Shown piece after piece: positions 159 to 44,376 of a stretch of DNA of 64,000 bases. The first letter of the stretch is position 1; the number at the start of each line of letters is the position of its first letter. A program made the position numbers and the translations under genes. The notes beneath the pieces were generated by a model. It did not search any database, was not told the DNA's origin, and saw only the letters and a program-made list of their open reading frames with translations. The DNA is from Myxococcus dinghuensis (GTDB lineage Bacteria; Myxococcota; Myxococcia; Myxococcales; Myxococcaceae): the NCBI RefSeq assembly GCF_024198235.1, contig NZ_JAKCFB010000003.1:434001-498000 (forward strand). Reading direction: 5' to 3'.

Positions 159-3100
159 TTATAGCTCATGCTCGAACGCCTTTTCCTGGGCGAGATTGTG
201 ACAGCGATGCTCGGTCGTAGGGAAGCGCCTGCTCACTTCTTGCAGCGCAGCCCGAGCCTGTCGCGCGCTTCGGAACTGCACGCCGCGCTGGAATTCCAGC
301 ATCAACTGGGCACATTGATGGTCCAGCTCGGCTGAAACCTGGGCGAGACGGTATCGAACGTCCTGGTAGAGGTCCGGCTTGGGGTCGAGCGCCTCCAGCG
401 TAATCCAGGCGAAGCGATACTGCTGCCAGGCCCGGAACAGGCTCTCCGCCCCTACCCCCCGAGTCTCATAGTAGCGCCCCGCCGTCGAGACGTACTCACG
501 CGCCTTGCTCAGCAGCTCCTCTGGGGGAAGCTCCGGGACGGGGAAGACCTCCAGGCGGAGGTTCCAGACGCGCCACGCGTCCTGACCTGGAGGGTTGTGG
601 ACGTTGTCGAAGACGAAGTGGTTCATCACCCCGCGCTTGAGCAGTCTCGCCGGGAGGATGACCTCCAGCTCGCGCTCGGCGGTGGAGAGCGTGTCCGGGG
701 GGATCCACCCGATATTCGCCCCGTTGAGGACCATGCTCACCTCTTCCGAGGCGATGCCGCTGGCCTGGTAGTGCAGCAGCGCGACGGCCCGGGTCGGCGC
801 CACGAACTGGAAGTCGAAGGACTTCTCGTCGGCGTGGACCCACTTCACACCTTCTCCCACACCGAAGGAGTCCACCACTGGCTCGACGCCCAGGGCCATG
901 GGCTCCAGTGCCCCGGCGCCCGAGGCCACCACCTTGCGGAACGCGAGGATCAACGCGCCACTCGCGACGCCCAGCACGAAGAGCGACACGGTGATGGCCA
1001 GGAGCCGGCGCGCCAGGGGGAGCGCGCGCCAGCCCAGGAGGAGCTGTCCCCACCTCGTGCTGGCAAGCTCCCGGCGTCTCCTGGCGAGCTCCGCGGCCGT
1101 GGGCGCCGCAGGAGCCTTCGCCGCGACCAATGCCGACGAGGTCGCGAGGCGAGGGACGACCTGGTGCGCTGGCGTGGGCGCGTCATCCGGCGCGGGAAGG
1201 GCCAGCATGCGCGGGGCCTTCGCCCGGGCGGGGGCGGCGATGAAAGCAGGAGCCACCTGGGGCGTGATGGCGTAGTCGGGCACTTCGCTGGCGATGGGTG
1301 CGCCCACGGTCGGTGGAACGTGAGCGAGGGTCGGCCCCTCGTCCCCTTCGCTGACCGGCGGTCCGACGCGCGCCACGCTCGGGGCGGGAACGTCGTCGAA
1401 GTCGGAGGCTCGCAGCGCGGGCGCGGGCGGAGTGCCCCCTGCGGTGAGTCCTTCGGGCCTCGTGGTGGGCGGGGCCGCCCTGCCCGTCGCCTGCGCGGTC
1501 AGGGGCGGAACCTTGATGTGGGTCGGTTCGTCGCCGAAGTCCGGAGGTGACAGTCCCCTGGGAGGCCCTGGAGGGGCCGCGGATGGACGAGAACCTGAAG
1601 GCCCCTGCCCCACGTCGACGCCTGGAGGGAACGCCGGAGGTACGGTCGCGGCGCCGAACATCCGCGTCGGGGACACCTTCGGGGCAGCGCTGGGAAGCGA
1701 GGCAGCGGAAGGGACGTTCTCGAGGAGATCGAACGTCTTCTCGGAGTCCGCGTCCGGACCGGCTCCAGACGACGCGCCAGCGCCCGCCCGCGAGGACGCT
1801 GCGACGGGCGCATCGGGGACGAGTGAGTTCTCGTCGGCGTCGGCCTCGTCCAGCAACATCGGAGGCAACGTCTGGTCGTCCTCCTCGACCCTCGAGCGAG
1901 TGCCCATGCGCGAGGACGCACCAGAGACACCCAGGTCCTCGTCGGCGTCCGCCGCCTCCAACGACATCGGAGGCAACGTCTGGTCGTCCTCCTCGACCCT
2001 CGAGCCAGTACCCACGCGCGGGGACGCACTGGGGACAACCAGGTCTGCGTCGACGTCGGACGCCCCCATGGACATGGGCGGCAACGTCTGGTCGTCCTCC
2101 TCGATCCTCGAGCCAGTGCCCACGTGAGAGGAGGAGGCGACGGGCGCATCGGAGACGACCGGGTCCGCGTCGGCTTCGGCCCCCCCCATGGACATGGGAG
2201 GCAACGTCTGGTCGCCCTCCTCGATGCTCGAGATGGCCGAGTCCGAGAGTTCCTCGACGCCCGAGACCTCCGACACTTCCTCCTCGGAGATTCGAGGCAG
2301 ACCTATCGACTGGACGCCCCGCTCCGCCGCGTTCGTGCGCTCGGGAAAGGACGTACTCGGAGACGGGCGCTCGGCCTCACGCCGAGCGAGCGCGGGCGAT
2401 GCGCCTTCGAGCGTGGGACGACGCGGGGGCTTGTCGCTGCCCGTCATGCCTCCGGGGGACGGGCTCACGGATACTGGCGCTGCGCTCAGGATGGGCGGAC
2501 CGCGCGGCGCGGCTCCGACAATTCCCGGCGAGCCAACACCGACGGGAGCTGGCCCACCCACTGCCGAGGGGGGCCGGCCGGCCGGCGACGCCGTGGGACC
2601 GCCTGGCGAGACAGGACCGGAACGCGGAGACTCCGCCGACACGCCCTGCCCGGCAGCAACCCCCACCTGCTTCACGGGAGCCACTGTCGGCGCAGACTTC
2701 GCGAGGACAGGGGCCTGTCCCGGCACGCCCGTGGGCCTCGCGACTCCAGGTGCTTGCGCGACACCGGCGCCAGCCGAGGGCGGAGTCGACAGACCTCCTG
2801 CGACAACACCACGGGGCATGCCTGGTACGGCGGGCACAGCCCCCGTCGCACTTCGCGAGGCCACGCTGGGCATGGGAGCGCCAGCAGCGCGTCCTTCGTG
2901 AGGAAGGGTCTTCGGCTCGGAGGAAAGAACGAGAGGGACGGACTTGGGCGCGGTGGGAGGCGCTACTGGCGGAGAACCCGCGCTCGCCGACACAACGGGG
3001 ATGGCTCTCGTCAGGGACGGCGCCGCCACGAGAACAGGGAAGCTGGTCGTCAGCGAAGGCTTCGGAGGGGGCTGCGTCGGTGGGACCGGCGGCTTCGCGA

Positions 3101-4334
3101 TGCCAGGAGCTGGCGAGACCACGTCTCGGGTGGGCTCGGGACGCGCCACCGTGCCAGGGACCAGGTTCTCCGTCCGCTCATCGAGCAATGGAGCCGAGAG
3201 CCCTCTCTTCGCGGAGCCCGGCTGCAACGTCTCGGTCCGCTCCTCGGGCGGGGGCACCGCGAACGGAACCGCGGTGTTCGAGGAACCCGCCACCCCGGGA
3301 GGACGCACGGGAGACAACTGGGCCAGCACCGCGGAGGGCGAGAGCATCGCGGTGCTCTCCTCGGGGTCATCCTCCGAGAACGGAGGGAGCGTCGACTCCC
3401 CCTCATCCGCGCCTCGAGGCCCCGTCGACGACGTGCGCTCCTCGTCCGTGAAGAGTCCCGGATGCGGCGCCCTCGGCTTGGGACCCTCGGTCGTCGGTCC
3501 ACGCTCCACCGTCGGACGCTCTACGGTCCTCGTCCGAGGAGTCGAGGCACCGTCTTCGGCAACAAGCCCCCGCGCCATGTCGGGGCGCGACTGCGCGGGA
3601 GTCGACGGCACCGGAGCTGGCGGCTTCGCGGGTGCGACCTTGCCCAGTTGAGCGAGCACCACCGCGGGTGCCAGCATCGCCGTGCTCTCCTCGGGGCCAT
3701 CGTCCGCCACCGGGGGCAATGCCGCCGCAACCGAAGCCACATCGAGTTGAGCCAACACCGCCGCGGGTGCCAGCATCGCCGTGCTCTCTTCGGGGCCATC
3801 CTCAGCGACCAAGGGCATCTCGGTCGCGGTCCGCTCCTCGAGCGCCTGCGCCTCCCGCGGAGAGGGGCCCTGCGCATCGCGCGGCCGCGTGGGCTTGGGG
3901 ACGGGAAACTCCACCGTGGGGCTGTACTCCTGCGGCGCCTCCATGCCGGGAGGCGGCCCCACCGCGATTCGAGCCGAGGGCCGCGACACGCCGCCGCGCC
4001 CTGCCTGCGACGACGCGAAGAACGTGAACTCCACCGCCCCGATGCCGACGCGGTCCCCATCCCCCACGGGCCGGGAGCCCTCGACGAGCACATCGTTGAG
4101 CGTGGTGCCGTTGGCGCTCCCCAGGTCTTCGAGGAACACCTGCCCGCCCCGAACGACGAGGCGGGCATGGAGGCGGGAGACACCGTGGTCGTTCAGCACC
4201 ACGTCGTTCTCCGAGGTCCGGCCGAACTTCAGTTCGGCCTGCTCGAAGACGAGTTCCCTCCCTGCCTGGGGACCGCGGGTGATGGCGAGCCGGAATGGCA
4301 GAGGAGCCCCCTCGACGTCACCCCGCGAGATCAC
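159..4334 (-). CDS. giant FHA-domain membrane protein of the Tad pilus locus
   Basis: A 1391-residue protein. An N-terminal FHA (phosphothreonine-binding) domain spans about 14-106 with the canonical residues G38-R39, S53, H56 and N75-G76. About 1000 residues of Pro/Ala/Ser-rich, probably disordered linker follow. It carries three copies of a PEESTAML-type motif, several ERTETL/DERTENL-type motifs and four EEDDQTLPPM repeats near 710-860. One membrane helix lies near 1112-1136. The C-terminal 250 residues look folded and helical, possibly TPR-like, and would be periplasmic if the linker is cytoplasmic. The GTG start overlaps the end of tadC by 17 bases, so it is translationally linked to the Tad inner-membrane genes. 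FHA proteins often read Ser/Thr-kinase signals; a role in controlling the pilus machine is inference. The function of the C-terminal part is unknown. Confidence 0.9.
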   Translation of the reverse strand: MISRGDVEGAPLPFRLAITRGPQAGRELVFEQAELKFGRTSENDVVLNDHGVSRLHARLVVRGGQVFLEDLGSANGTTLNDVLVEGSRPVGDGDRVGIGAVEFTFFASSQAGRGGVSRPSARIAVGPPPGMEAPQEYSPTVEFPVPKPTRPRDAQGPSPREAQALEERTATEMPLVAEDGPEESTAMLAPAAVLAQLDVASVAAALPPVADDGPEESTAMLAPAVVLAQLGKVAPAKPPAPVPSTPAQSRPDMARGLVAEDGASTPRTRTVERPTVERGPTTEGPKPRAPHPGLFTDEERTSSTGPRGADEGESTLPPFSEDDPEESTAMLSPSAVLAQLSPVRPPGVAGSSNTAVPFAVPPPEERTETLQPGSAKRGLSAPLLDERTENLVPGTVARPEPTRDVVSPAPGIAKPPVPPTQPPPKPSLTTSFPVLVAAPSLTRAIPVVSASAGSPPVAPPTAPKSVPLVLSSEPKTLPHEGRAAGAPMPSVASRSATGAVPAVPGMPRGVVAGGLSTPPSAGAGVAQAPGVARPTGVPGQAPVLAKSAPTVAPVKQVGVAAGQGVSAESPRSGPVSPGGPTASPAGRPPSAVGGPAPVGVGSPGIVGAAPRGPPILSAAPVSVSPSPGGMTGSDKPPRRPTLEGASPALARREAERPSPSTSFPERTNAAERGVQSIGLPRISEEEVSEVSGVEELSDSAISSIEEGDQTLPPMSMGGAEADADPVVSDAPVASSSHVGTGSRIEEDDQTLPPMSMGASDVDADLVVPSASPRVGTGSRVEEDDQTLPPMSLEAADADEDLGVSGASSRMGTRSRVEEDDQTLPPMLLDEADADENSLVPDAPVAASSRAGAGASSGAGPDADSEKTFDLLENVPSAASLPSAAPKVSPTRMFGAATVPPAFPPGVDVGQGPSGSRPSAAPPGPPRGLSPPDFGDEPTHIKVPPLTAQATGRAAPPTTRPEGLTAGGTPPAPALRASDFDDVPAPSVARVGPPVSEGDEGPTLAHVPPTVGAPIASEVPDYAITPQVAPAFIAAPARAKAPRMLALPAPDDAPTPAHQVVPRLATSSALVAAKAPAAPTAAELARRRRELASTRWGQLLLGWRALPLARRLLAITVSLFVLGVASGALILAFRKVVASGAGALEPMALGVEPVVDSFGVGEGVKWVHADEKSFDFQFVAPTRAVALLHYQASGIASEEVSMVLNGANIGWIPPDTLSTAERELEVILPARLLKRGVMNHFVFDNVHNPPGQDAWRVWNLRLEVFPVPELPPEELLSKAREYVSTAGRYYETRGVGAESLFRAWQQYRFAWITLEALDPKPDLYQDVRYRLAQVSAELDHQCAQLMLEFQRGVQFRSARQARAALQEVSRRFPTTEHRCHNLAQEKAFEHEL
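1861..2233. repeat. four imperfect tandem repeats inside the FHA gene
   Basis: Four copies of a segment beginning GGAGGCAACG (third copy GGCGGCAACG) start at 1861, 1969, 2077 and 2197, so the periods are 108, 108 and 120 bases (36, 36 and 40 codons). They are in frame and encode the EEDDQTLPPM repeat on the minus strand. The high nucleotide identity over the roughly 30-base core suggests recent tandem duplication or ongoing homogenisation. Confidence 0.8.
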
Positions 4335-39353: not shown

Positions 39354-39995
39354 CTACAGGCAGCCGAGCTCCATGCCCCGGAGGACGGCGCGCGTGCGGT
39401 CGCGGACGCCCAGCTTGGACAGGATGCTGGAGGTCTGGTTCTTCACCGTGCCCTCGGCCGTGCCGAGCGCCTCGGCGATTTCACGGTTGCTCAAGCCCCG
39501 GGCGATGAGCCGCAGCACCTCCACCTCGCGGCGGGTGAGGCCCTCCGGCAACTGCGCGTGGGGGAAGTCCCGGGGCACCTCCGCCATGCCGCGCGCCACC
39601 CGCTCCGCCACGCCGGGCGGCAGCAGCGTCTGGCCCGCGTGCACGCGGCGGATGGCGTCCGCGAGTTCGTCCAGGGACACGTCCTTGAGGAGGAAGCCCT
39701 GCACGCCCGCGCGCAGCGCCTCGATGATGGCGGCGTCCTCGTCGAAGGTGGTGAGCAGCACCACGCGGCGGTGGGGCGAGTCGCCGCGCAGCGCGCGCAG
39801 CGCCTCCAGGCCCGTCATCCGAGGCATGCGCACATCCATCAGCACCACGTCCGGGTCCAGCTCCGCGACCTTGCGCAGCGCGTCCTCTCCATCCACGGCC
39901 TCGCCCACCACCCGCAGGTCCGGGGTGAGGTCCAGGAGGCTCCTCAGTCCCTGTCGGACGAGGGCGTGGTCATCCGCCAGCACGAGTCGAATCAT
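39354..39995 (-). CDS. NarL/LuxR-family response regulator
   Basis: A 213-residue regulator. The receiver domain (1-118) has D8-D9, phospho-acceptor D54 (LMDVRMPRM) and the Lys of LLKD. The helix-turn-helix (about 150-205) has LTRREVEVLRLIARGLSNREIAEAL and TVKNQTSSILSKL. The upstream kinase gene overlaps its start by 4 bases, so they form a pair. It may bind the palindrome at 41184-41212. Confidence 0.93.
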   Translation of the reverse strand: MIRLVLADDHALVRQGLRSLLDLTPDLRVVGEAVDGEDALRKVAELDPDVVLMDVRMPRMTGLEALRALRGDSPHRRVVLLTTFDEDAAIIEALRAGVQGFLLKDVSLDELADAIRRVHAGQTLLPPGVAERVARGMAEVPRDFPHAQLPEGLTRREVEVLRLIARGLSNREIAEALGTAEGTVKNQTSSILSKLGVRDRTRAVLRGMELGCL

Positions 39996-41152
39996 GATTC
40001 ACCCCTCGCCGTCGCCGGCAACCACGCCTCCAGCTCCCAGCCCCGCCCGGCCTCCGCGCGCCAGGCCACGTCGCCACCCAACCGGGTGAAGCGCTCGCGC
40101 ATGCCCGTGAGCCCGGCGCCCGGAACGGGGGCTTCGGCGCCCAGCCCGTCATCCCGCGTGACGACGCGCACCCCACCGGCCTCCGAGGACTCGATGCGGA
40201 CCCACAGCTGCGTGGCGCGCGCGTGGCGCAGCGTGTTCGTGAGGACCTCCTGCACGCAGCGGATGAGCGAATGCGCCGCCTCCGACGACGCGACCTCGAG
40301 GTCCTCCGGCACGTCGAGGTGGACCGTCAGGCCGGGCGTGTTGGCCACGAGCGCGCGCAGCGAATCGCGCAGGGGCGGCGGCGTGTCGCGCAGGGCCGAC
40401 ACCGTCTCGCGGACCTCGGACAGCAACGTCCGCGCGGCCTCGCGGGCGCGCCGCAGGTGTTCGGCGGAGGGCGTGTCCTTCGCGGTGTACACGGCGGCCT
40501 CCAGGTTGAGGGACAGGGCGGTGAGGTGGTGGCCCAACGAGTCGTGCAGTTCGCGCGCGATGCGCAGCCGCTCCCCTTCCCGCTCCCGGGCCGCCAGCAG
40601 CATCTGCGTGGACTGAAGCTGCGCGTGGAGCCGCGCCAGCTCCCTGCGCGCCTGGGCCTCGCGCACCATGACGATGGCCGACGCGAGCGTGAACCCCTGG
40701 AAGCCGAAAAAGATGAGCCCCTGGATGAGCGCACCCGCGAGCGGATGGAAGCAGAGGTAGACGCCCACCAGGGCCGCGGACTGCGCGGCCACCCAGAGCA
40801 CCGCACGGCGCTGCGAGAGCAGCTCGGGGGCCTGGGCCGCGACGATGGCCAGCAGCGCGCCATCCACCCCGGTGCGGCCCGTCGCCACGACGACCAGCGC
40901 CGACAGCGTCTCGAGCGCCAGCAGGGGAACACTGCCGACATCGTCGGCGGCCGCGTTGCGGAAGTAGGCCACGCCGAAGACGAGGAACGCCGCGAGCCAC
41001 GGCAGTGCCTCGGACGTCGGCCCTGCACGCAGGAGGTCTCCCGCGTGCGTCGAGCCGACGACGCCCCAGGTGAGCAACCCGGCCGCCAGGAACAGTCGCC
41101 GGGTGGCGGGGGATTTCGTCGCGCCGTGCCGCTGGGCCATGCGTCGCAGCAT
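39992..41152 (-). CDS. sensor histidine kinase, HisKA_3 type (DesK/NarX-like)
   Basis: A 386-residue kinase. The N-terminal 190 residues hold five or six membrane helices without a large outer domain, as in DesK-type sensors of the membrane. The phospho-acceptor His is in RIARELHDSLGHHLTALS. The ATPase domain has EVLTNTLRHA, RDDGLG and GAGLTGMRERF. ATG at 41152; ATG at 41140 is an alternative. It lies just upstream of its response-regulator gene (ATGA overlap). The signal is unknown; membrane state is a guess from the architecture. Confidence 0.92.
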   Translation of the reverse strand: MLRRMAQRHGATKSPATRRLFLAAGLLTWGVVGSTHAGDLLRAGPTSEALPWLAAFLVFGVAYFRNAAADDVGSVPLLALETLSALVVVATGRTGVDGALLAIVAAQAPELLSQRRAVLWVAAQSAALVGVYLCFHPLAGALIQGLIFFGFQGFTLASAIVMVREAQARRELARLHAQLQSTQMLLAAREREGERLRIARELHDSLGHHLTALSLNLEAAVYTAKDTPSAEHLRRAREAARTLLSEVRETVSALRDTPPPLRDSLRALVANTPGLTVHLDVPEDLEVASSEAAHSLIRCVQEVLTNTLRHARATQLWVRIESSEAGGVRVVTRDDGLGAEAPVPGAGLTGMRERFTRLGGDVAWRAEAGRGWELEAWLPATARGES

Positions 41153-41183
41153 AGGGCGTCCACCGCGCCCCGGGGCATGTGCC

Positions 41184-41212
41184 GGAAGTCACATGCGCGC
41201 GGTGTGACTTCC
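41184..41212. promoter_or_regulatory. palindromic operator candidate in the kinase/DUF2306 divergent region
   Basis: A perfect 10-bp inverted repeat, GGAAGTCACA (41184-41193) and TGTGACTTCC (41203-41212), with a 9-base spacer. It lies 31 bases from the kinase start and 66 bases before the divergent membrane-protein start. The arms are in the opposite order to a CRP box (TGTGA-N6-TCACA). A dimeric regulator such as the neighbouring NarL-type protein is the natural candidate ligand. Confidence 0.65.
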
Positions 41213-41278
41213 CGCAGATGTGGGCCCTGGAGCGCTTGCGTACCTTGACTCCCGACTCGCCGTTCGTCGGAGACACCC

Positions 41279-42001
41279 ATGACGCTCTTCTCGCTCGCCC
41301 GCTCCATCCACATCGCCGCGGGCGTCGTCGGCTTCATCTCGCTCTGGTTGCCGCTGGTGGCCAGGAAGGGAGGCACGCTGCACCGCCGCGTGGGCTGGGT
41401 GTACGTGGGCGCCATGGGCGTCGTCGCCGCGTCGGCGCTGGTGCTCTCCGGGTCGCGGTTCGTCCTGGAGCCGGCCGCGCGCTCCACCGCCCTCTTCTTC
41501 ATCTACCTGAGCGCGCAGAGCGCGGCGGCCTCCTCGCTGGGCGTGCGGGTGCTGCGCGCCAGGCACCGCACCGGCGCGCACCGGAGCCTGCTCGACCTGG
41601 CCATGGCGGGGCTCCTCCTGGGCCTGGGGCTCTTCACGGCGGGCTGGGGCGTGGTGATGCACGTGCCGCTGCTGTGGGGCTTCGCGCCCGTGGGCATCTA
41701 CACGGGCGCGACGACGCTGCACTACTGGCTCAACCCGCCCAAGGAGCGCATGCACTGGTGGTTCCAGCACATGGGCGCCATGGTGACCTCGGGCATCGGC
41801 ACGCTGACGGCGGTCCTCGTGGTGAACGCGCGGCACCTGGGCATCAGCGGCATGCAGCTCGCGGTGTTCCTCGCGCCCACGGTGGTGGGCGTCACGGGGC
41901 TGCGCATCTGGAAGCGCTACTACCGCCAGAAGTTCTCGCCCCGCCCGACCGCGACGAGCACGCCGTCCGACGCCGTGCCACCCGCACTCTCCGGGGAGTG
42001 A
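41279..42001 (+). CDS. multi-pass membrane protein (DUF2306-like)
   Basis: A 240-residue protein with seven or so membrane helices and conserved His residues (SIHIAAGVVGFI, TLHRRVGWVYVG, TGAHRSLLD, MHWWFQHMGAM). This His pattern recalls DUF2306/cytochrome-b-like membrane proteins that may bind haem or metal. ATG at 41279. It is divergent from a sensor kinase pair and shares a palindromic intergenic region with it, so it may be a target of that system. Confidence 0.75.
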   Translation: MTLFSLARSIHIAAGVVGFISLWLPLVARKGGTLHRRVGWVYVGAMGVVAASALVLSGSRFVLEPAARSTALFFIYLSAQSAAASSLGVRVLRARHRTGAHRSLLDLAMAGLLLGLGLFTAGWGVVMHVPLLWGFAPVGIYTGATTLHYWLNPPKERMHWWFQHMGAMVTSGIGTLTAVLVVNARHLGISGMQLAVFLAPTVVGVTGLRIWKRYYRQKFSPRPTATSTPSDAVPPALSGE

Positions 42002-42003
42002 GC

Positions 42004-42031
42004 CCCCAGGCCCCCCTACTCGGGCCTGGGG
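42004..42031. terminator. bidirectional hairpin between convergent genes
   Basis: CCCCAGGCCC (42004-42013) and GGGCCTGGGG (42022-42031), a perfect 10-bp stem with an 8-base loop, starts 2 bases after the stop of the plus-strand membrane-protein gene and includes the end of the opposing 786-residue gene. Confidence 0.65.
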
Positions 42032-44376
42032 AGGACGCCGAGGTACACGGCGAGCCAGAGCGGGAGCAGGTAGTCGACCCCGGCAGCCTCGGTATCAGGC
42101 TGGCCCGGGTCGATGGCGATCCGCGCCGGGTCATGCGGCAGCATGGGGGGCCAGGGAGGCAAGGGCGCGAGGAACCCGGTCTCGAAGGGATGCCGCTGCC
42201 ACACGAACTCCATGTGGCTCCCGGGCCGCTTGTGGACCGGCAGCGCCCAGACGCTGCACCACGAGACCGGCGTCTTCCGTCCCTGCGGCGCATAGGGTGC
42301 GACGCGGTCGGGATAGAGGGACTGGAGATAGGCCGGGTCGGGCGTCTTCAGGGTCGGCATCCCCGTGGGCGAGGCAACCTGCTGGAGTCGCAGGAGCCAC
42401 TCGTGGAGGAGCGCGCGAATCTCTTCCGCGAGCGTCACCGTCGGGTCGTAGCCCCCGGGACCGTCGAGCAGCGCCTGTCGCTGCTCGGGGAGCGCCACGA
42501 GGACGCTCACGAGGTCGAAGTACGCGTTGCGGTGGTGCGCGACGCCGTGGCGCAGCAGCTCGAACATGCGGACATATCCGTCCCGCGGCGCGGGCGCGTC
42601 CTCGAGGAGGAGCAGCAACGACGCCGAGGCATGCCCGAGGTTGAACTTCCACGGCTCTTCCAGCGGCTCCGCCGCCGCGCCCCACGTCGTGAGCCACGAG
42701 GCCCCCGCGGCCGCCGCGACACTGTCGTAGAGCGCGCCGAACGCCGTCGGGTTCACCGTCTTCCCCACGCGGAGGAAGGCGAGCTGGTGGGTGAACTGGT
42801 TGAAGAAGGTGGTGACGATGGGCTGGGACTCCTCCGGCTCCAAGGGGCCGCCCGCGGTCGCGGCGCTCCATTCGGACAGCTCGCGCCTGGGCGTCACCAC
42901 GTTCCAGTGGTGGCTCAGCAGATGCTGGAGCATCGCGGTCACCAGGGAGGCCGACGCGGCCCTCACCTCCGCGTCCTCCACGAAGCGGAAGGCGTACGCC
43001 AACCCCAACAGCACCCCGAGGTACGTGTCTCGACTCGGCGGTTTGTCTCCGCGCCCGAAGCCGTGCCAGTCCCGGCCGTCCAACGTCACCGGCCCGTAGT
43101 ACCGGTCCAGATGGTCCTGGGGATGGGCGAAGGGAGGCTCTGTCTGGATGGGAGCGTCGTCGGGGAGCGCGGCGCGGGCCACGAGCCCGGGAACACCTGT
43201 CACCTCGAACAGCTTGCGCAGTCCCTCCATGGTCTGCCGGACGCGGGCCAGGGCCGCGGCACGTCCCTCGGCGGTCGTCGCCACGGCATGGCGCAGGGAC
43301 TCCGCCGCCAGGTAGTGACCGGTCCAGATGGCCGAGTCGACGTAGCCCTCGTACACGGGCTGCTTCGGAGGAGGGCTTCGCTTGATTTCGAAGAGGGCGC
43401 CATGCGGAAGGTGCGCCGCGATGCCCTCCTCCAGCACCCACGCGGGCGCGAGGAAGTCCGTCCCCGGAGGCACCGGCGCGAGGTCGTCGAGCGGGGGCCC
43501 GCCCCAGTCCCGAGGCAGGGGGCCTCGGAGCATCGCCGCCAGCTCGTCGACCAGGGGGACCGGGAGCCCGGTGTCCATCGACCACGAGAACGGCACCCGC
43601 GTCCGGCCCAGCACGGGGAGGTCGAAGAGCAGCTCGCCGACCAGTTGGAAGGTCAGCGTCGGCAGGGGCCTCACCACCACCACCCCGGAGAAGAGGGCCT
43701 CTCCGAGGGGAGGGATTTCGAGCAGGGGGAACGCGCCGAGCGGGTATTCGAAGCGCAGCCCCCCCTCCGGGTCGATGACGGGCCGGAAGACATCCAACGG
43801 CAGCGAGAGGAAGCTCAGGGCGGACAGCTCCAAGCGCCCCTGGGGCCTGATTCGGAGGCGCGAGAGCCGGGGAAGCCCTCCCGCCTCGGGGGAAGGCTCG
43901 AGGTGCGCCGCGCCCACCAGACGGAAGCCCCTCAGCTCCAGGTCCAGCGTGGCGTGGGCATCCAGCCCCGCGCCCTTCTTCGTCCACCACACCCAGAGCC
44001 GCCCTCGGAGGATGGTCTTCAGGCGCACGAGCCACGAGGTCTCGAGTGGGACGGCGAGCCGGACCTCCTCCTCGGAGAGCGCCTCGTAGCCCGGTGGACT
44101 GGCGATGGAGGTGTGGAGCCGCGCGGAGTCGACCCAAAGACAGACTTGATAGGACCCGAGGGGTAGCCGCTTCAGGAAGGACGGCCCCGCCCGGCGCGGT
44201 CCCGAGTCATACCGCCATTGCAGTTGCCTGACGACCTCCTCCGCGTTGCGAGTGTACTGCGTATGCAGCAGCGTCCACGGGTCGGCGACGAGCACATTGA
44301 CGGAGCGGACCCGGAGGTCCGCGGAGGATGAGGCCGGGACGACACCACTTTCGACGAGCGCGTCATCGGGTGCCAT
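42016..44376 (-). CDS. large protein of unknown function
   Basis: A 786-residue protein with no signal peptide or membrane helix. The N-terminal 320 residues look beta-rich, with paired strands (LDLELRGFRLVGAAHL, LPTLTFQLVGELLFDL). From about 340 a helical region begins with YVDSAIWTGHYLAAESLRHA, then GFGRGDKPPSRDTYLGVLLGLAYAF, and continues with regular helices to the end. These motifs recall (alpha/alpha)-toroid enzymes of the six-hairpin glycosidase type, but no catalytic pair is certain. It ends in a Trp/Pro-rich tail. No neighbour explains its role. Confidence 0.85.
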   Translation of the reverse strand: MAPDDALVESGVVPASSSADLRVRSVNVLVADPWTLLHTQYTRNAEEVVRQLQWRYDSGPRRAGPSFLKRLPLGSYQVCLWVDSARLHTSIASPPGYEALSEEEVRLAVPLETSWLVRLKTILRGRLWVWWTKKGAGLDAHATLDLELRGFRLVGAAHLEPSPEAGGLPRLSRLRIRPQGRLELSALSFLSLPLDVFRPVIDPEGGLRFEYPLGAFPLLEIPPLGEALFSGVVVVRPLPTLTFQLVGELLFDLPVLGRTRVPFSWSMDTGLPVPLVDELAAMLRGPLPRDWGGPPLDDLAPVPPGTDFLAPAWVLEEGIAAHLPHGALFEIKRSPPPKQPVYEGYVDSAIWTGHYLAAESLRHAVATTAEGRAAALARVRQTMEGLRKLFEVTGVPGLVARAALPDDAPIQTEPPFAHPQDHLDRYYGPVTLDGRDWHGFGRGDKPPSRDTYLGVLLGLAYAFRFVEDAEVRAASASLVTAMLQHLLSHHWNVVTPRRELSEWSAATAGGPLEPEESQPIVTTFFNQFTHQLAFLRVGKTVNPTAFGALYDSVAAAAGASWLTTWGAAAEPLEEPWKFNLGHASASLLLLLEDAPAPRDGYVRMFELLRHGVAHHRNAYFDLVSVLVALPEQRQALLDGPGGYDPTVTLAEEIRALLHEWLLRLQQVASPTGMPTLKTPDPAYLQSLYPDRVAPYAPQGRKTPVSWCSVWALPVHKRPGSHMEFVWQRHPFETGFLAPLPPWPPMLPHDPARIAIDPGQPDTEAAGVDYLLPLWLAVYLGVLPRPE

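What the first reader, a model, noticed from the sequence alone, without database searches (positions are those of the whole stretch)
39354..42001. DesK/NarL-type pair with a perfect palindrome facing a divergent membrane protein
GGAAGTCACA-N9-TGTGACTTCC lies in the shared 126-base promoter region. The kinase is nearly all membrane, like DesK, and the divergent gene encodes a His-rich multi-pass protein. A membrane or redox state circuit with one target gene is likely.
Basis: partly seen in the sequence, partly recalled or inferred. Interest (0 to 1): 0.55.

Follow-up and report, generated by a model that had tools for sequence, protein, structure and literature searches.

The report
Two-component switch with back-to-back operator units
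A predatory soil bacterium carries a membrane sensor and its DNA-binding partner that most likely switch on themselves and a neighbouring seven-helix membrane protein through two mirror-image DNA sites; some relatives put the same site before a carotenoid-oxygenase-type operon, which hints at what the sensor responds to.

Summary
The palindrome is real (41184-41212), unique in the 10.4-Mb genome, and conserved at a fixed place in 21 of 22 family loci with kinase and intact membrane gene. It is better read as two 20-bp units, 5 bp apart: CATGTGCCGGAAGTCACATG (41176-41195), facing the kinase, and a mirror copy (41201-41220), facing the membrane gene. Each resembles a NarL-type 7-2-7 site. In 65 of 69 promoter sequences a TA, as in a -10, lies 18-22 bp after the unit, which puts the unit near -42.5, an activator's place. 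In 96 family genomes the kinase is in 37, all with a unit (two of them diverged) upstream of the kinase operon; all 10 genomes with a close DUF2141 gene have a unit before it, followed by an RPE65 (carotenoid-oxygenase) type gene in the 7 opened. Where the membrane gene is lost (8 of 30), the kinase-side unit stays (0-1 changes), the other decays in 6, and DUF2141 is present in 8. So an autoregulated circuit with one further target here is well supported by comparison. 'Redox' is not supported. The membrane protein is a distant DUF2306 relative; its function and the signal are inferred. No binding or expression data exist.

The parts
39354..39995 (-). NarL/DesR-type response regulator, 213 aa
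   Evidence: Response_reg and GerE; closest solved sequences VraR, DevR, NarL, DesR; full-length copies 88-96% identical beside the kinase in 10 genus relatives, 67% (partial) in G090
39992..41140 (-). DesK-type histidine kinase, 382 aa from the conserved start (41152 is an upstream in-frame ATG)
   Evidence: HisKA_3 and HATPase_c; DesK is the best solved match; start conserved in orthologues; six N-terminal helices in the model
41148..41153 (-). predicted -10 (TATGCT) of the kinase promoter, 22 bp from the unit; the ATG follows 7 nt later (leaderless)
   Evidence: TA at 19-22 nt from the unit in 23 of 23 kinase promoters used
41176..41195 (-). operator unit facing the kinase, CATGTGACTTCCGGCACATG read towards the gene
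   Evidence: kept with 0-1 mismatches in 8 of 8 genomes that lost the membrane gene
41201..41220 (+). operator unit facing the membrane-protein gene (mirror copy, GGTGTGACTTCCCGCAGATG)
   Evidence: decayed or gone in 6 of 8 genomes that lost the membrane gene
41241..41246 (+). predicted -10 (TACCTT) of the membrane-protein promoter, 20 bp from the unit
   Evidence: TA at 20 nt in 21 of 23 membrane-gene promoters used
41279..42001 (+). seven-helix membrane protein, 240 aa, distant relative of DUF2306
   Evidence: AlphaFold2 model with seven helices, mean pLDDT 93.4; DUF2306 below the curated cut-off here (18.1 of 31.6 bits), above it for two of five homologues

Best explanation
A DesK-type kinase with a six-helix membrane sensor phosphorylates its NarL-type regulator, which binds a 20-bp unit (core TGTGCCG-GA-AGTCACA, a 7-2-7 inverted repeat) centred near -42.5 and activates transcription in place of a -35 element. 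In this window two such units stand back to back (cores 9 bp apart): one drives the kinase-regulator operon (positive autoregulation, leaderless mRNA), the other the divergent seven-helix DUF2306-like gene. The palindrome is the sum of two directional sites, not one site. Shown by comparison: conservation, orientation, spacing, unlinked copies mostly in kinase-carrying genomes, separate decay of the two units. Inferred: that this regulator is the binder, that the effect is activation, and that the signal is hydrophobic or membrane-borne, possibly a polyene, since the alternative target is a DUF2141 + carotenoid-oxygenase-type operon.
For: Palindrome unique in the genome. Core GTCA-N13-TGAC at -91 to -94 from the membrane-gene ATG in 21 of 22 family loci with kinase and intact membrane gene (L182-L202); the 22nd, G090, keeps the kinase-side unit exactly and has N14. 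An acidobacterial locus, L126 (kinase 41%, regulator 54% over 83 residues, membrane protein 42% identical), has the same N13. Eight loci with a membrane-gene homologue but no kinase in the DNA fetched (L203, L205, L206, L208-L211, L125) show no such element. In 96 family genomes the kinase (E<=1e-75) is in 37; a unit with up to 2 mismatches is upstream of the kinase operon in 35 of these, the other two (G004, G143) have 3 and 4 mismatches; 1 of 59 kinase-less genomes has a hit. Kinase-side units are linked to the kinase, so the telling hits are the other 22: 21 in kinase carriers, against 7 hits of the reversed-pattern control in all 96 genomes. Ten of them lie about 57-63 bp before a DUF2141 gene, which at E<=1e-30 is found in exactly these 10 genomes. 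TA falls at 18-22 nt after the unit in 65 of 69 promoters. NarL 7-2-7 sites at napF and yeaR lie at -40/-49 and -38/-47 (PMC4549865, passages).
Against: No binding, expression or start-site data; activation is inferred from position alone. 4 of 69 promoters lack TA at 18-22 (G090 and L126 membrane genes, DUF2141 of G002 and G012), and in the other five DUF2141 promoters the TA lies inside CATATT. Four units were left out of that count: G152 (TA present), G121:C9 (inside a coding frame, no TA) and the upstream second copies in G010 and G019 (no TA); with them 66 of 73. One hit lies in a kinase-less genome (G152). At the level of the whole palindrome with up to 3 mismatches, kinase-less G013 (2 mismatches) and G025 (3) also have a hit, and kinase carrier G020 has none. 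Genera g21 and g22 have the kinase but no membrane gene, so that gene is not an obligatory output. The regulator of L126 is cut by the contig end, so its DNA-binding domain could not be compared.
Confidence: 0.8

Rival explanations
1. The palindrome is a single operator for one dimer or tetramer that represses both divergent promoters, released on signal.
For: Near-perfect inverted repeat with a fixed spacer in 21 of 22 family loci.
Against: Single units occur before DUF2141 and other genes, and a second copy of the kinase-side unit stands alone in G010 and G019; the kinase-side unit is kept without its partner in G020, G022, G110, G112, G113, G115; the units sit upstream of the predicted -10, not over the start site.
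Confidence: 0.1
2. Another regulator, for example of the CRP/FNR family with TGTGA/TCACA half-sites (recalled motif), binds here and the adjacent pair is incidental.
For: TGTGAC/GTCACA resembles such half-sites by eye.
Against: Of 22 units away from the kinase, 21 are in kinase-carrying genomes; the element is shared with a divergent acidobacterial locus that also has kinase, regulator and membrane gene.
Confidence: 0.06
3. The repeat acts as an RNA hairpin or bidirectional terminator.
For: Perfect inverted repeat.
Against: No T run beside it, it lies upstream of both starts, and single units with the same orientation occur elsewhere.
Confidence: 0.02
4. As to the membrane protein: it is not an effector enzyme but an accessory sensor or transporter that feeds back on the kinase (compatible with the regulatory reading above).
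For: Divergent, with the same kind of promoter, seven helices.
Against: Kinase and regulator persist without an intact copy in 8 of 30 genomes and in g21/g22; a fungal DUF2306 protein is needed for an epoxidation (PMC12895699, passages).
Confidence: 0.3

Closest known systems
DesK/DesR of Bacillus subtilis
   Same: the kinase domain's best solved match by sequence is DesK (E 5.8e-16); the regulator matches DesR among others; no extracytoplasmic domain visible in the model; a very small regulon with a membrane-related target (recalled for DesKR)
   Different: six rather than five membrane helices (model; five for DesK is recalled); the target is a DUF2306-like protein, not a desaturase; operator sequence differs (recalled)
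NarL (E. coli) 7-2-7 sites at napF and yeaR
   Same: inverted heptamers separated by 2 bp; position near -42 to -45 (PMC4549865, passages)
   Different: heptamers of the type TGTGNCN instead of the NarL heptamer; two sites back to back for divergent promoters
VraSR / LiaSR envelope-stress systems
   Same: VraR is the closest solved regulator (E 4.8e-44); the kinase matches a LiaS model far below its cut-off (47.4 of 450 bits)
   Different: no third membrane partner gene in the kinase operon of this locus; targets differ (those of VraSR/LiaSR are recalled)
DUF2306 protein PraC (Macrophomina phaseolina)
   Same: membrane protein; two of five homologues of the window protein pass the DUF2306 cut-off
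   Different: 393 aa with 5 predicted helices, needed for epoxidation in a fungal pathway (PMC12895699, passages); the window protein itself scores below the cut-off
DUF2141 genes next to crtG in Sphingomonadales
   Same: DUF2141 gene adjacent to a carotenoid-related gene (PMC5989583 and PMC9241875, passages)
   Different: here DUF2141 precedes an RPE65-family gene and carries the operator unit, in relatives only; no DUF2141 match in the window genome at E<=0.001

Membership tests
DesK-type histidine kinases | HisKA_3 dimerisation domain plus HATPase_c | tested here: met
   PF07730 70 bits, PF02518 34 bits, both above cut-off
DesK-type histidine kinases | sensor made of membrane helices only | tested here: met
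   six helices in residues 11-176, then the kinase; model of moderate confidence, mean pLDDT 73
DesK (the cold/membrane-thickness sensor itself) | five membrane helices and control of a fatty-acid desaturase | tested here: not met
   six N-terminal helices in the model; adjacent target is DUF2306-like. The count of five for DesK is recalled
NarL-type response regulators | receiver domain plus GerE/LuxR helix-turn-helix | tested here: met
   PF00072 100 bits, PF00196 61.2 bits
NarL 7-2-7 operators | inverted heptamers separated by 2 bp | tested here: met
   TGTGCCG-GA-AGTCACA reads as such by sequence (5 of 7 heptamer positions symmetric); definition from PMC4549865
NarL 7-2-7 operators | bound as a dimer by the regulator | not testable with these tools
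   needs gel shift or footprint
DUF2306 (PF10067) | score above the curated cut-off | tested here: not met
   window protein 18.1 bits against 31.6; of five homologues two pass, 45.6 and 33.3 bits; so a distant relative, not a filed member
solved membrane-protein folds | significant structural match in the PDB | tested here: inconclusive
   Foldseek best E 0.17; VIA-align best Z 9.3 over 82 residues, rmsd 2.5, to a designed helical protein

The most novel reading that the evidence does not exclude
A new signalling family, shared by Myxococcaceae and at least one acidobacterium, in which a six-helix kinase senses a polyene- or isoprenoid-type lipid in the membrane and switches on one of two interchangeable oxygen chemistries: a seven-helix DUF2306-like membrane enzyme, or an exported DUF2141 + carotenoid-oxygenase pair. 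The two outputs replace each other in evolution while the kinase-side operator unit stays intact.
Probability: 0.2. Interest if true: 0.75.

Novelty: new member of a known kind. Interest (0 to 1): 0.5.

Why it matters
Regulons of DesK/NarL pairs are hard to predict from sequence. Here the operator, its direction, its spacing to the -10 and a small set of targets can be read off by comparison, so one gel shift and one reporter would test the circuit. It also gives a functional lead for two families of unknown function, DUF2306-like and DUF2141, by tying them to the same switch and to an RPE65-family gene. I saw no paper on this pair, motif or pairing in the listings (12 of 85 and 12 of 153 papers listed) or (15 of 258 papers listed, none with the 20-base unit).

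Tried and rejected
Redox or haem sensing by the kinase: no invariant or nearly invariant Cys or His in its membrane part among 13 sequences. A single symmetric operator: disfavoured because single units occur elsewhere. Hairpin or terminator: no T run. More targets in the window genome: the degenerate half pattern gave 48 hits at up to 3 mismatches against 64 for the reversed control, with only the two known at 0 mismatches and two others at 2. Fold of the membrane protein: no match worth naming in the PDB; that shows neither a new fold nor its absence. Neighbours of distant membrane-protein homologues: no shared neighbour was seen by eye in the nine loci listed; a kinase or regulator match appeared in 12 of the 72 loci (10 Myxococcaceae, of which Pyxidicoccus fallax L133 shows the kinase only; L126; and L179, a DesK/NarL pair downstream on the same strand, 29% and 50% identical). 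A weight-matrix scan scored the true elements of G090 and L126 below zero (-14.6 and -2.9) and the loci without an element at -22.5 or lower; the first two were recognised by place and by eye. In one search my column labels for the left unit were shifted by 4; the values were read with that shift. That every genome of g1, g16, g19 and g20 with the kinase but without an intact membrane gene has DUF2141 (8 of 8, against 2 of 22; Fisher 7.7e-6) is not corrected for shared descent, and a regulator without any target may be lost, so part of the pattern may be survivorship. The sorting of the 59 hits into promoter classes was done by reading the coordinates, not by a script. More distant DUF2141 homologues in four other-family genomes (G025, G026, G030, G039) were not examined for units.

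Full report
WHAT IS THERE. On the minus strand lie a DesK-type kinase and a NarL-type regulator, overlapping by 4 bp; on the plus strand a 240-aa membrane protein. The kinase start conserved in orthologues is 41140. The model of the membrane protein has seven helices at mean pLDDT 93.4; that of the kinase has six N-terminal helices before the cytosolic part, at moderate confidence (mean pLDDT 73).

CONSERVATION. In a first set of 41 genomes (own and relatives) the membrane gene is in 12, of which one is truncated (G012) and two are distant; the kinase is in 12 at E<=1e-50. The palindrome at up to 3 mismatches is in 13: at the kinase locus in 11 (10 with 0-1 mismatch, G022 with 3), and elsewhere in G013 and G025, which lack the kinase; G008 and G019 have an additional 3-mismatch hit; kinase carrier G020 has none. 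Ten loci aligned show the same block, longer than the palindrome. In a phylum search, 31 of 195 genomes have a membrane-gene homologue. Of the 30 loci returned, 22 carry an intact gene beside the kinase; 21 have GTCA-N13-TGAC at -91 to -94 from its ATG, and G090 has N14 with the left unit exact. G012 has the operator but a truncated gene. Seven loci without a kinase in the roughly 1.5 kb fetched on each side, and L125 (5 kb), show no such element. One acidobacterial locus (L126, 'Candidatus Sulfopaludibacter') has kinase, regulator, membrane gene and GGTGCCGGAAGTCA-N13-TGACGTGTGGCACATG. In 21 rows laid without gaps, 15 of the first 16 positions of the left unit and 13 of 20 of the right unit are invariant, against 0 of 5 between the units and 2 of 20 between right unit and -10.

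TWO UNITS, NOT ONE SITE. Each half is itself a near-palindrome (left: CATGTG-N8-CACATG) and fits a NarL-like 7-2-7 layout (TGTGCCG-GA-AGTCACA). Three observations separate the halves. (a) G010 and G019 carry an extra copy of the left unit alone. (b) Where the membrane gene is lost, the kinase-side unit is kept with 0-1 mismatches in 8 of 8 genomes, while the other unit is decayed or gone in G020, G022, G110, G112, G113 and G115 and still present in G012 and G111, whose genes are shortened. (c) Single units occur before other genes (below).

REGULON. In 25 genus genomes the 20-bp unit at up to 2 mismatches has 17 hits, all in kinase carriers (11 of 12; the twelfth, G004, has 3 mismatches) and all at kinase or DUF2141 promoters; the 13 non-carriers have none at that level and only 3-mismatch hits, which the reversed control also gives. 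In 96 family genomes there are 59 hits in 36 genomes: 37 upstream of the kinase operon in 35 genomes, 10 before DUF2141 genes, 4 in genus g22, 6 in g21 (before RCC1-repeat and CARDB proteins and a 217-aa protein), 1 inside a coding frame (G121:C9), and 1 in a kinase-less genome (G152). The reversed-pattern control gives 7 hits. In g21 the unit lies 260-840 bp before the kinase, in G123 with a 219-aa gene between. The kinase is in 37 of the 96 at E<=1e-75, DUF2141 in 10 at E<=1e-30, all 10 with the kinase and with a unit about 57-63 bp upstream. In the seven loci opened DUF2141 is followed by an RPE65-type gene: by Pfam in G002, G020, G022, by similarity in G012 (91%), by the look of its first residues in G108, G111, G113; the other three were not opened. 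In g22 the frame right after the unit has 62 codons in G125 and G127, followed by an RCC1-repeat gene, and is broken in G126 and G128, followed by an esterase gene, so the g22 target is unclear.

PROMOTER GEOMETRY. Read towards the gene the unit is CAYGTGACTTCCGGCACATG or close to it at kinase, membrane-gene, DUF2141 and g21/g22 promoters. In 65 of 69 promoter sequences a TA lies at 18-22 nt after the unit (kinase 23 of 23, membrane gene 21 of 23, DUF2141 5 of 7, g22 6 of 6, g21 10 of 10); 68 of the 72 TA dinucleotides in the first 33 nt fall there. Four units were left out: G152 (TA present), G121:C9 and the distal copies in G010 and G019 (no TA); with them 66 of 73. The kinase group peaks at 21, the membrane-gene group at 20. 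The seven DUF2141 promoters have CATATT, CATCTT or CATCCT starting at 20. If this is the -10, the unit centre lies at about -42.5 (kinase in this window about -44.5), near the places of NarL at napF and yeaR (PMC4549865). From this I infer activation in place of a -35. The kinase ATG follows its -10 by 7-8 nt in most orthologues and by 9-10 in three, i.e. a leaderless message.

WHAT THE OUTPUT MAY DO. The membrane protein is a distant DUF2306 relative with conserved H11, K30, H35, H164 and M168. The one DUF2306 protein with a reported role that my search returned, fungal PraC, is required for an epoxidation (PMC12895699). DUF2141 genes lie beside crtG in Sphingomonadales (PMC5989583, PMC9241875). 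Among the 30 kinase carriers of g1, g16, g19 and g20, DUF2141 is present in 8 of 8 that lack an intact membrane gene and in 2 of 22 that have one. This suggests alternative outputs and, weakly, polyene or isoprenoid chemistry; survivorship and shared descent may explain part of it. The seven kinase carriers of g21 and g22 have neither gene at the thresholds used.

VERDICT. Observation confirmed and sharpened; the DesK/NarL reading is right in kind; 'one target' fits this genome; 'redox' is unsupported. A new, testable member of a known kind of system, with a functional lead for two unknown families. For all papers cited I saw passages only.

Noticed in passing
42016-44376 (-): 786-aa reading frame next to the membrane gene with no Pfam or NCBIfam match and no tblastn match in the 13 other loci fetched; not searched genome-wide.
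   Followed up: partly
L319 (G152), 2702-3962: A unit in a genome without a detected kinase lies just downstream of a fatty-acid desaturase gene and points at a small gene, with TAC at 20 nt; a more diverged kinase may have been missed.
   Followed up: partly
L312, L316, L318 (g21): In this genus a unit precedes a 217-219-aa protein with a signal-like start, which in G123 stands directly before the kinase; further units precede CARDB and RCC1-repeat proteins.
   Followed up: partly
L322 (G121:C5:555629-556717): A second, 50% identical kinase paralogue in the same genome, with no unit at up to 4 mismatches in the 8.5 kb fetched around it.
   Followed up: partly
L179 (Anaerolineales MAG): A DUF2306-like gene is followed on the same strand by a DesK/NarL-type pair (29% and 50% identical), a possible independent or ancient pairing.
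   Followed up: partly
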